Source of the DNA: Alloprevotella sp.
GTDB taxonomy: Bacteria > Bacteroidota > Bacteroidia > Bacteroidales > Bacteroidaceae
NCBI GenBank assembly: GCA_017477205.1
Contig: JAFUXE010000035.1
Coordinates: forward strand, 1-34,695
DNA: 34,695 nt
Direction: 5' to 3'
The stretch's first letter is position 1. The number at the start of each line of letters is the position of its first letter. Positions 16,574 through 27,392 of this stretch are shown here, piece after piece. A program made the translations under genes and the position numbers. Below the pieces are notes generated by a model. That model was given only the letters and a program-made list of their open reading frames with translations, made no database searches and was not told the DNA's origin.

Positions 16574-16612
16574 GTTTTCTTTCCGAATCCATCGGCTTTT
16601 GCCTTTCCTTTT

Positions 16613-16712
16613 CGAGGCTTCAAAAATCTTTTTTGTGCCTTCAAAATGATTTTTCGAGCCTTTAAAAAACATTTTTGCGCCTTTAAAACTTATTTTTGCG
16701 CCTTCAACATTA
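16613..16712. repeat. five-copy 21-bp tandem repeat upstream of ettA
   Basis: Five degenerate copies of a unit built as GnGCCTTYAAAA followed by an AT-rich TTTTT block have their GCC cores at 16616, 16637, 16658, 16679 and 16700, an exact 21-bp period. Copies differ at several positions, so this is an old or constrained array rather than a recent duplication. The last copy holds the ettA -7 box. Both strands stay open across it as a heptad-repeat peptide, which is a trivial result of the 21-bp period. Confidence 0.8.
16691..16698 (+). promoter_or_regulatory. -7 box for ettA within the 21-bp array
   Basis: TATTTTTG matches TAnnTTTG and lies 36 bp before the ettA ATG. It sits at the junction of the fourth and fifth copies of the tandem repeat. 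The matching position of the earlier copy reads CATTTTTG, so only the last copy meets the consensus. Confidence 0.5.
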
Positions 16713-21120: not shown

Positions 21121-23064
<1,944 letters not shown>

Positions 23065-23139
23065 TGTTGTGTGTGTATTTGTTTTGTTGTTATTGTTTGT
23101 TTGTCTGTTTCTGTCCGTTTTCGGGACGCTTTTTCTCTT

Positions 23140-23156
23140 TGCAAACAGCGTGCCAA
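23140..23156 (-). promoter_or_regulatory. sigma-54 (-24/-12) promoter motif facing dnaK
   Basis: The minus strand reads TTGGCACGCTGTTTGCA. This matches the RpoN consensus TTGGCACG-N4-TTGCA at every fixed position, with GG at 23154-23153 and GC at 23142-23141 correctly spaced. The predicted start is near 23129, giving a leader of about 65 nt that is A-rich and lacks a Shine-Dalgarno. No TAnnTTTG box was found between it and the dnaK ATG. Sigma-54 control is an inference from the motif. Confidence 0.7.
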
Positions 23157-23270
23157 AACCTCCCCGTCGGCTTCTGCAGGCATGGAAATGCGGCATTTTG
23201 TCACGGTTGTCCGCTTTTGCCCGCGCGCATGCGCCTCCTTGCTCGCCTTTCGCGCCTTCTTGCTCGTCGC

Positions 23271-23358
23271 CCACGACCGTGGGACGAAGAAACCACCGAC
23301 GTGGGCAGAAAAAACCACGACCGTGGGATGAAGAAACCACCGCGGTGGTTTATGAGCG
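23271..23358. promoter_or_regulatory. four tandem 22-bp dyad units, candidate enhancer array
   Basis: Four units begin at 23271, 23293, 23315 and 23337, an exact 22-bp period. Each starts with a 12-bp dyad CCAC-N4-GTGG: CCACGACCGTGG, CCACCGACGTGG, CCACGACCGTGG and CCACCGCGGTGG. In the first three the dyad is followed by a G and an A-rich spacer such as ACGAAGAAA. Two turns of helix per unit place all dyads on the same face of the DNA. The array lies about 140-220 bp upstream of the predicted sigma-54 start of dnaK, the usual distance for activator binding sites. It is also upstream of the divergent GT5-like gene. The rest of the gap, 23359-23500, is GC-rich, with one bulged hairpin near 23430-23462 and no gene. 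Confidence 0.75.
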
Positions 23359-23502
23359 ACGTGCCCGGGAAGGCGATGCCGTGTGCCTGAAGAGACGCCC
23401 CGACGTGCCTGCGGACGCGACGCGATGCGCTCCGGGCCGCCATGCGCGGCGCCCCGGACTCCCCGTTTTCTGGGAGGCGGAGAAAAATAAATGGCTCTGG
23501 GC

Positions 23503-23535
23503 TTGCTCCTTTACAAAAGTTTTTTTATATCTTTG
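23503..23535 (+). promoter_or_regulatory. promoter of the GT5-like gene (-33/-7)
   Basis: TATCTTTG at 23528-23535 matches TAnnTTTG exactly, and TTG at 23503-23505 is a candidate -33 box, with a 22-bp spacer that is slightly long. The start would be near 23542, about 50 nt before the ATG at 23595. This supports that ATG over an open in-frame extension back to 23442. Confidence 0.65.
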
Positions 23536-23594: not shown

Positions 23595-24419
23595 ATGAAA
23601 GCAGAAAAAGTATTGTACATCACGCAGGAAGTGAAGCCTTACTCTCCTGAAACTCCCATGTCCCTGCTGGGACACACCATTCCCGCCCAACTTACGGAAG
23701 ACGGACGGCAGGTACGCACCTTCATGCCCCTGTGGGGGACCATCAACGTGCGCCGCCACCAGCTCCACGAGGTGCAGCGCCTCTCCGGCATGAACATCAT
23801 CATCGACGAGAGCGACCACACGCTGGTCATCAAGGTGGCTTCTGTTCCCCAGTCGCGCACGCAAGTCTATTTCATCGACAACGACGACTACTTCCACAAG
23901 CGCGGCGCCCTGACCGACGAGGCCGGGAATCCCTACGAGGACAACGTGGAGCGCGCCATCTTCTTTGCGCGCGGCGTTCTGGAGACGGTGAAGAAGTTCC
24001 GCTGGATTCCCGACGTGATTCACTGCCACGGATGGATGTCCATCTTCGCGCCGCTGCTGATCCGCACGGCTTACAAGGACGATCCCCCCTTCACGTCCGC
24101 CCGCATCCTGTTCTCCGCGTACGGTCCCACGCCCGAGGCGCTTGCCCCCGCAGCCTTCTCGCGCCTCGTGCGCTTCCGCTCGCTGAACGACCGCGCCTTG
24201 CGCAACGCCGGGCTCAGCCTGAAGAACGACATCGCGCCCGAGGACCTGCTCATGACCTTCTGCGACGCCTACGCCGTCGGTGCCCCGGATGCCGCCCCGA
24301 GGCTTTTCTCCCGCGCCCGCGAGGAGGGAAAACCCGTCATGGAGCTTGTGGAGGGCGACGCCACGCAAGCATGCATTGACTTCTACGACAAACTTCTGGA
24401 TGAAGCGGGCGCAGAATGA
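23595..24419 (+). CDS. half-length glycogen/starch synthase-like protein (GT5 N-terminal domain only)
   Basis: The 274-aa protein resembles only the N-terminal Rossmann domain of GlgA: VLYITQEVKPYSPETPMSLL, then MPLWGTINVRRHQLHEVQ, DNDDYFHKRG, and DVIHCHGWMSIFAPLLIRT. The C-terminal glycosyltransferase half is absent. The N-terminal ADP-glucose-binding KxGGL motif of GlgA is replaced by a segment around SPETPMSLLG. It is therefore probably not an active synthase on its own. This half-size form followed by a DUF4270 lipoprotein gene is, as I recall, a common Bacteroidetes arrangement. Its function is unknown; a regulatory or scaffold role is only a guess. The true glycogen synthase here is likely the GT3 enzyme at 30157-31791. 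Confidence 0.85.
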   Translation: MKAEKVLYITQEVKPYSPETPMSLLGHTIPAQLTEDGRQVRTFMPLWGTINVRRHQLHEVQRLSGMNIIIDESDHTLVIKVASVPQSRTQVYFIDNDDYFHKRGALTDEAGNPYEDNVERAIFFARGVLETVKKFRWIPDVIHCHGWMSIFAPLLIRTAYKDDPPFTSARILFSAYGPTPEALAPAAFSRLVRFRSLNDRALRNAGLSLKNDIAPEDLLMTFCDAYAVGAPDAAPRLFSRAREEGKPVMELVEGDATQACIDFYDKLLDEAGAE

Positions 24420-26660: not shown

Positions 26661-27367
26661 AACGGGCGATTGTCATAGGAGCCTCGTCGGGCATAGGACG
26701 GGAAGTGGCGCTTCTGCTGAGGCAGGAAGGCTGGAAACTGGGCGTTGCCGCCCGCCGGGAGGACTTGCTGCGCAGCATCGGCGACGACGTGGAGGTTGCG
26801 CAGATAGACGTGACGCAGCAGGATGCCTGCGAGCGGCTTCGGAATCTTGTTGAAAAGGTGGGGGGAATGGACCTTTTCTTCTACGCCTCCGGCATCGGCA
26901 GGCAAAACCGGGAATTGAGGGAGGACACGGAGCTGCGCACCGTCGAAACCAACGCGCTTGGCTTCACGCGCATGATTGGCGAGGCCTATCGCTACTTTGC
27001 GGAACAGGGAACCGGGCACATCGCCGCCATCACGTCCATCGCCGGCACAAAGGGACTCGGCCCCGCGCCTTCCTATTCCGCCACGAAAGCCATGCAGGGT
27101 GTCTATCTGCAGGCTTTGGAGCAGCAGGCACATGCGCGCGGCCTGAAGATACGCTTCACGGACATACGCCCGGGCTTCGTGGACACGGCTCTGCTGAGCG
27201 GCGACTTCCACTATCCCATGATGCTTCGCCCCGAGCGGGTGGCGCGCGAGATTGTCTCAGCCATCAAGGCCCGCCGCCACGTCCGCGTCGTCGATTGGCG
27301 CTACCGCCTGCTGACAGCCCTTTGGCGGCGCATTCCCCGCTGCCTTTGGCGAAGGATTCGCCTGTGA
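26657..27367 (+). CDS. short-chain dehydrogenase/reductase (SDR)
   Basis: The 236-aa protein has the Rossmann motif GASSGIG (8-14), which prefers NADP(H) given the following AARRE basic pair. It has an active-site set of N99, S127 (AAITSIAG), Y140 and K144 (YSATK), and a cofactor-pyrophosphate loop RPGFVDTALL. This is a classical SDR of the YqjQ/DltE-like group; the substrate is unknown. It overlaps the nucleotidyltransferase gene by 4 bp. The last five codons and the stop lie in the first of two tandem 20-bp copies, so the duplication does not change the protein. Confidence 0.9.
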   Translation: MKRAIVIGASSGIGREVALLLRQEGWKLGVAARREDLLRSIGDDVEVAQIDVTQQDACERLRNLVEKVGGMDLFFYASGIGRQNRELREDTELRTVETNALGFTRMIGEAYRYFAEQGTGHIAAITSIAGTKGLGPAPSYSATKAMQGVYLQALEQQAHARGLKIRFTDIRPGFVDTALLSGDFHYPMMLRPERVAREIVSAIKARRHVRVVDWRYRLLTALWRRIPRCLWRRIRL

Positions 27368-27388
27368 AGCGAAGGATTCGCCTGTGAA
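27349..27388. repeat. 20-bp tandem duplication across the SDR stop codon
   Basis: GCGAAGGATTCGCCTGTGAA occurs twice without a gap (27349-27368 and 27369-27388). Each copy can form the small hairpin GCGAA-GGA-TTCGC. Identity of the copies suggests a recent slippage or duplication event. Confidence 0.9.
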
Positions 27389-27392
27389 GCGT

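What the first reader, a model, noticed from the sequence alone, without database searches (positions are those of the whole stretch)
23140..23358. dnaK appears to have a sigma-54 promoter with a phased enhancer array
The minus strand upstream of dnaK carries TTGGCACGCTGTTTGCA, a full match to the RpoN -24/-12 consensus, and has no -7 box of the housekeeping type. About 140-220 bp upstream of the predicted start lie four CCAC-N4-GTGG dyads at exactly 22-bp steps (23271, 23293, 23315, 23337), all on one helix face. Sigma-54 promoters need an AAA+ activator bound at just such a distance. The combination suggests that the Hsp70 chaperone is controlled by RpoN and an enhancer-binding protein instead of by HrcA/CIRCE or sigma-32. 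No activator gene lies in the window.
Basis: partly seen in the sequence, partly recalled or inferred. Interest (0 to 1): 0.85.

Follow-up and report, generated by a model that had tools for sequence, protein, structure and literature searches.

The report
Sigma-54 heat-shock promoter of dnaK
In this bacterium the gene for the stress chaperone DnaK is very probably switched on by the unusual sigma-54 system, as in its relatives, but the eye-catching row of repeats upstream looks like a scattered repeat element and not the switch; a smaller conserved site next to the promoter is the better candidate.

Summary
Observation confirmed: TTGGCACGCTGTTTGCA lies at 23140-23156 (-) and four CCAC-N4-GTGG dyads lie at exact 22-bp steps.
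Promoter reading supported: TGGCA[CT]-N5-TTG[CT] sits before dnaK in 47 of 47 upstream regions read (31 of the near group, window included; 16 from other Bacteroidales) and 0 of 80 glgA-like controls. rpoN is in 55 of 58 related genomes. Variant boxes precede groES (27/30) and hsp20 (21/28).
Enhancer-array reading not supported: the array is a copy of a dispersed element (15 matches in G001, 10 in G021 at E<=1; 12 and 6 below 0.01) of 3-4 units with inverted-repeat ends. No array in the other 30 dnaK regions. One probable exception: a G021 contig end.
Better activator site: dyad CTGMCA-N3-TGKCAG, mostly 26-32 bp before the box, phased by about 10.5 bp elsewhere, in 15 of 16 held-out dnaK promoters; degraded in the window at 23189-23205 (p 0.002-0.003).
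45 of 58 genomes encode exactly one strong sigma-54 activator. Sigma-54 at dnaK is already reported in Flavobacterium; I found no report of the site or the single-activator link.

The parts
21121..23064 (-). dnaK (Hsp70), 647 aa
   Evidence: Translation; Pfam HSP70 E 2.7e-251
23140..23156 (-). sigma-54 -24/-12 promoter TTGGCACGCTGTTTGCA; predicted start near 23129
   Evidence: box conserved in 47 of 47 dnaK regions
23189..23205 (-). degenerate upstream activator dyad CGTGACAAAATGCCGCA (consensus CTGMCA-N3-TGKCAG), 31 bp before the TTTGGC of the -24 box
   Evidence: Score 8.1, shuffle p 0.002-0.003 with the softer matrix, above the 95% but not the 99% null; not found with the first, harder matrix (p 0.21)
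23271..23348 (.). four 22-bp CCAC-N4-GTGG units: one copy of a dispersed repeat element
23349..23361 (.). right terminal inverted repeat of the element, TTTATGAGCGACG; left end (CGTCGC, 23265-23270) is degraded
   Evidence: Compared with G001 copies
23595..24419 (+). divergent neighbour: short glycogen/starch-synthase-like protein (GT5 N-terminal domain)

Best explanation
dnaK here belongs to a sigma-54 heat-shock regulon of the Bacteroidales. RNA polymerase with RpoN sits closed at the -24/-12 box (23140-23156); an AAA+ activator bound at a dyad one short step upstream (23189-23205) remodels it. Shown by comparison: the promoter, its conservation, rpoN in relatives, the conserved dyad and its helical phasing. 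Inferred: that the dyad is bound by the sensor-less AAA+-Fis activator which is the only strong sigma-54 activator in most related genomes, that it responds to protein damage, and that the window's own genome (not held) encodes both. The 22-bp array is a separate dispersed element lying between dnaK and its divergent neighbour.
For: Box in 31/31 and 16/16 dnaK regions, 0/80 glgA-like controls, 0 of 9400 shuffled regions. groES variant box 27/30 with the relaxed pattern, 1/80 controls; hsp20 21/28, 0/80 controls with that pattern. Strict boxes in six genomes, 18 sites: dnaK in 6 of 6, and also two Clp ATPases, ClpP and thioredoxin (Pfam). rpoN 55/58. One strong PF00158 protein in 45 of 58, two or more in 11, none in 2 (hand count, E below 1e-30). 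Of 24 activator frames printed from 30 loci, 22 start almost directly with the AAA+ domain; Pfam shows AAA+, lid and Fis HTH and no sensor in the two tested. An LptE gene follows the activator in the 4 loci tested. Dyad: 20/31 group dnaK promoters above the 95% null (many of these trained the matrix; the window did not), 15/16 untrained promoters above the 99% null, 3/80 controls above 95% with the best at 11.8. The 11 sites outside 26-32 bp keep the helical phase of the main group at 10.5 bp (R 0.74, simulated p 0.0013). Precedent: mapped starts with a sigma-54 motif at dnaK, groESL, grpE-dnaJ, htpG, clpB in F. psychrophilum (PMC9723704, passages).
Against: No whole genome is held for the window, so rpoN and the activator are inferred from relatives. 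The window's dyad is a half-site plus a degraded half, and its significance depends on the matrix used. The five nearest relatives by DnaK (L081, L089, L090, L091, L092) stay below the 95% null at dnaK (L090 reaches p 0.009 in the 20-40 bp stretch), although four of their activators keep the HTH letters (L119, L126, L130; L273, in a split frame). groES with the strict pattern scored 0 of 30; its -12 is T[GCA]G[CT]. At 26-32 bp the dyad lies near -55, closer than textbook enhancers (recalled), so it could bind another regulator. In PMC9723704 mutagenesis tested another operon's promoter, not dnaK's. Related sequences are not independent samples.
Confidence: 0.82

Rival explanations
1. The 22-bp array is the enhancer: an activator hexamer binds the four dyads at -142 to -219 and loops to the promoter.
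For: Exact 22-bp steps and distance fit. A contig end in G021 (L267) carries a 3-unit copy 155 bp before a perfect sigma-54 box whose surroundings resemble the window's dnaK promoter (gap 112 bp in the window); full dnaK is missing from that assembly, so this may be its dnaK region.
Against: The element occurs at many other loci in G001 and G021; of 21 copies read, three have a relaxed hit within 400 bp and only L267's is a proper box (some flanks are cut by contig ends). No array at dnaK in the other 30 group regions (one lone dyad in L090; L102 only 381 bp read), including G001, which has many copies elsewhere.
Confidence: 0.07
2. The conserved dyad CTGMCA-N3-TGKCAG binds a different regulator (a repressor or a nucleoid protein) and the sigma-54 activator acts without a specific site or from elsewhere.
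For: Very short and fairly fixed distance; 11 of 31 group dnaK promoters with intact boxes stay below the 95% null; G010's activator has no HTH by Pfam.
Against: Helical phasing at 10.5 bp over 18-90 bp fits a DNA-bound activator touching polymerase; the dyad recurs at groES (7/30 by a full-dyad regex) and at some hsp20 promoters (2 of the 9 parsed; by eye).
Confidence: 0.3
3. dnaK is transcribed mainly by the housekeeping sigma factor and the box is a chance match.
For: With two mismatches the motif is at chance frequency in the window.
Against: 47 of 47 conservation with invariant TGGCA and TTG; no TAnnTTTG upstream.
Confidence: 0.03

Closest known systems
Sigma-54 protein-quality-control regulon of Flavobacterium psychrophilum (PMC9723704; passages read)
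   Same: Mapped starts with a -24/-12 motif at dnaK, groESL, grpE-dnaJ, htpG, clpB; a sigma-54 regulator gene listed with lptE behind one promoter, as the activator and lptE lie together in the 4 loci tested here.
   Different: Another order of Bacteroidota (recalled); three PF00158 proteins there, usually one strong one here; the passages I read name no activator binding site.
COG-level prediction of sigma-54 chaperone genes in Bacteroidota (PMC12316311; passages and part 2 of the reference list read)
   Same: Finds DnaK, GroEL, GroES, GrpE, DnaJ, IbpA enriched under predicted sigma-54 promoters in Bacteroidota, Bacteroidia included.
   Different: Promoter matrices; no activator site in the passages read. 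Its reference for B. thetaiotaomicron is a cockroach endosymbiont paper, so that support is unclear.
PspF-type sensor-less enhancer-binding proteins (recalled)
   Same: AAA+ domain plus Fis HTH, no N-terminal sensor.
   Different: A long stretch without Pfam match between lid and HTH; no PspA partner sought.
BrickBuilt MITE of Porphyromonas gingivalis (PMC4596501; abstract and section 7 part 1 read)
   Same: Dispersed element, 23-nt tandem units, inverted-repeat ends, 19 copies.
   Different: Here 22-bp units that are each a dyad, three or four per copy read; ends differ; transposition not tested.

Membership tests
Sigma-54-dependent promoter | GG at -24 and GC at -12 with fixed spacing | tested here: met
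   Exact match
Sigma-54-dependent promoter | rpoN in the organism | tested here: inconclusive
   Own genome not held; 55 of 58 relatives have it
Sigma-54-dependent promoter | Transcription start 12 nt after the GC and loss in an rpoN mutant | not testable with these tools
   Needs the bench
Sigma-54-dependent promoter | Activator binding site upstream | tested here: inconclusive
   Conserved phased dyad in relatives; degraded in window
Enhancer array of CCAC-N4-GTGG dyads | Conserved at dnaK and tied to sigma-54 promoters | tested here: not met
   No array in 30 other group regions; dispersed elsewhere; probable exception L267
BrickBuilt-like MITE | Tandem units of about 22-23 bp between terminal inverted repeats, dispersed in the genome | tested here: met
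   Tested on relatives' copies: 14 of 14 G001 copies read have 4 units at 22 bp; 7 G021 copies have 3 or 4. The window's left end is degraded and its genome is not held
BrickBuilt-like MITE | Always intergenic | tested here: inconclusive
   4 of 20 copies overlap an unannotated frame of 90 aa or more, possibly spurious
BrickBuilt-like MITE | Target-site duplication and IS5-like ends | not tested
   Ends TTCATAAA...TTTATGAA differ from those printed in PMC4596501; duplications not examined
HrcA/CIRCE control | CIRCE inverted repeat near the start | tested here: not met
   No exact half-site in window (sequence recalled)

The most novel reading that the evidence does not exclude
In Bacteroidales the heat-shock response runs through one dedicated, sensor-less sigma-54 activator that binds a helically phased dyad CTGMCA-N3-TGKCAG beside the promoters of dnaK, groES and hsp20, and whose activity is set in trans, perhaps by free chaperone.
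Probability: 0.5. Interest if true: 0.75.

Novelty: new member of a known kind. Interest (0 to 1): 0.55.

Why it matters
Sigma-54 promoters cannot fire without an ATP-driven activator. If the main chaperones of abundant gut bacteria are under it, their heat-shock control differs in kind from the sigma-32 and HrcA textbook cases (recalled). The comparison names one activator family and one DNA site, so the question of what senses protein damage in Bacteroidales becomes directly testable.

Tried and rejected
Rejected: the array as enhancer. An array upstream of the glgA-like gene at a similar distance in L001 is a different repeat, and only 4 of 80 such regions have one. Enrichment of 20-23-bp arrays at dnaK (7 of 47 upstream, against 4 of 80 glgA-like, 3 of 30 groES, 2 of 43 dnaK downstream) was too weak to use. 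The adjacent glgA-like loci carried no dnaK. An unbiased dyad count put TGACA-N3-TGTCA in 5 of 31 regions against a shuffle maximum of 2, with TATAT/ATATA in 6; the first matrix with hard penalties did not score the window (p 0.21), the softer one did: the window's site depends on that choice and was first seen by eye. G010's HTH-less activator was considered as a natural test and dropped: its clpP promoter scores 12.0. A first hsp20 scan parsed only 9 of 30 loci and was replaced. Literature searches without a hit; one search gave nothing useful beyond PMC12316311. PMC12596196 and PMC3162934 (passages) mention no sigma-54 control of dnaK.

Rows left out: dnaK rows without a locus (5 full, 3 N-terminal pieces, and paralogue or C-terminal pieces) were not read, 2 of 18 loci were partial; for hsp20, L251 (weak) was left off and L250 was too short, 28 examined; one search scored 15 of 21 first-look candidates in G001, so its count is a lower bound; one search kept the best 80 of 496. 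The control group of 80 is the glgA-like loci. What I say of absence from print rests on the searches and the passages.

Full report
What was claimed and what is there. The -24/-12 match is exact and the only exact one in the window. The four dyads are at exact 22-bp steps.

Where the window comes from. No genome is held for it. A scan of genome contigs with the neighbouring glgA-like protein gave RUG689, an uncultured Prevotellaceae bacterium, as the best match at 65%; its DnaK is 93% identical. I therefore worked through the 58 genomes of its group and 20 genomes behind other loci, one of which (G011) is also in the group.

The promoter. In all 31 dnaK upstream regions read from the group (window included; 30 loci) and all 16 usable ones of the 18 found, TGGCA[CT]-N5-TTG[CT] occurs within 200 bp of the start codon; none of 80 glgA-like control regions and none of 9400 shuffled regions has it. 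The TGGCA and TTG columns are invariant, partly because the pattern demands them. With the core TTGGCAC-N5-TTGC the counts are 25 of 31 and 2 of 16, because the second set mostly ends in T. rpoN (PF04552) is in 55 of 58 genomes. groES has a variant box in 27 of 30 by the relaxed pattern, 1 of 80 controls, but 0 of 30 by the strict pattern. hsp20 has a box in 21 of 28, 0 of 80 controls with the same pattern over 500 bp. A strict scan of six genomes found 18 sites, 1 to 6 each: dnaK in all six; two Clp ATPases, ClpP and a thioredoxin, confirmed by Pfam; one small fragment that looks like Hsp20 but has no Pfam match; other sites had no recognised stress gene after them.

The activator. A hand count of the sorted list gives one strong PF00158 protein in 45 of 58 genomes, two or more in 11, none in 2; the weak hits mostly sit in frames of 700-900 aa, as in Clp ATPases (inferred). 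Of 24 activator frames printed from 30 loci, 22 start almost directly with the AAA+ domain and two carry a receiver-like N-terminus (by eye); two tested by Pfam have AAA+, lid and Fis HTH only, apart from weaker overlapping AAA and HTH models. An LptE gene lies next to it in the four loci tested. If a genome has only one activator, it must serve the sigma-54 promoters there; that is the inference on which the single-activator model stands, and draft assemblies could hide a second one.

The upstream dyad. Reading the 31 regions side by side showed CTGMCA-N3-TGKCAG close to the -24 box. With a symmetric matrix, 20 of 31 exceed the 95% null, and 17 of those 20 lie 18 to 32 bp before the box. In the 16 regions that did not train the matrix, 15 exceed the 99% null; 3 of 80 controls exceed the 95% null. 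Among 35 sites, the 11 outside 26-32 bp keep the phase of the main group at a 10.5-bp repeat (R 0.74; p 0.0013 by simulation; the best of the periods tried from 8 to 13.5). The species are related, so p-values are guides only. In the window the best site, CGTGACAAAATGCCGCA, is 31 bp from the box, p 0.002-0.003 by shuffles, and ranks fourth among all places in the window; with the first matrix it was not found. The five nearest relatives stay below the 95% null at dnaK, which weakens the link to the window.

The array. Used as a query, the array finds 15 places in G001 and 10 in G021 at E up to 1, of which 12 and 6 are below 0.01, the strongest 8.7e-16; the best match in any other genome is 0.036. 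In G001 all 14 copies read have four units at 22-bp steps, with cores mainly AAGC/GCTT and AGAC/GTCT, between ends of the form AGGCTTCTCGTTCATAAA...TTTATGAACGAGAAGCCT; of seven G021 copies five have three units and two have four, one step being 21. They lie between varied genes; 4 of the 20 copies overlap an unannotated frame. Two G001/G021 pairs lie beside similar genes (L255/L268, L264/L271, by eye), so some copies are old. Relaxed sigma-54 hits lie within 400 bp of 3 of 21 copies, only one of them a proper box: the G021 contig end L267, whose flank resembles the window's dnaK promoter and whose assembly lacks dnaK, with 155 bp between array and box against 112 in the window. Its upstream dyad is not found by the matrix (score 1.1). 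This exception should be kept in view: if it is dnaK, two of the three species in which I saw the element have a copy near dnaK. More broadly, 21-22-bp tandem arrays with dyad units are common in these loci: of 36 arrays of period 21-22 with at least 2.4 copies, 16 have arms of 5 or more against 3.4 expected from shuffled units, and periods 19-20 and 23-24 are rare. The window has others at 16609-16707 and 27349-27391.

Verdict. dnaK under sigma-54 is very probably right and is a new member of a regulon already reported in Flavobacterium (PMC9723704) and predicted for Bacteroidia (PMC12316311). The array is most likely something else. The phased dyad and the single sensor-less activator are the parts I found in no paper, and they can be tested.

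Noticed in passing
window 16609-16707: Another tandem dyad array, 21-bp unit CTTCAAAAATCATTTTTGCGC, 4.3 copies.
   Followed up: partly
window 27349-27391: Perfect 20-bp tandem repeat with inner dyad GCGAAGGATTCGC, 2.2 copies.
   Followed up: no
L001-L113 and window: Tandem repeats in these Bacteroidales loci peak at period 21-22 and their units are often dyads of different sequence in each array; L011 carries three different ones close together.
   Followed up: partly
L274 1616-2626: The only strong sigma-54 activator of G010 (337 aa) has AAA+ and lid but no HTH by Pfam.
   Followed up: partly
L273 near 3349: A four-unit copy of the CCAC array lies upstream of the sigma-54 activator gene in G001.
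   Followed up: no
L273 1987-3050: The G001 activator gene reads as two frames with start codons in this assembly, though one search reports an open frame without stops around the AAA+ match; not resolved.
   Followed up: no
window 23528-23535: TATCTTTG, a -7-type box for the divergent glgA-like gene on the plus strand, seen in the sequence (consensus recalled).
   Followed up: no
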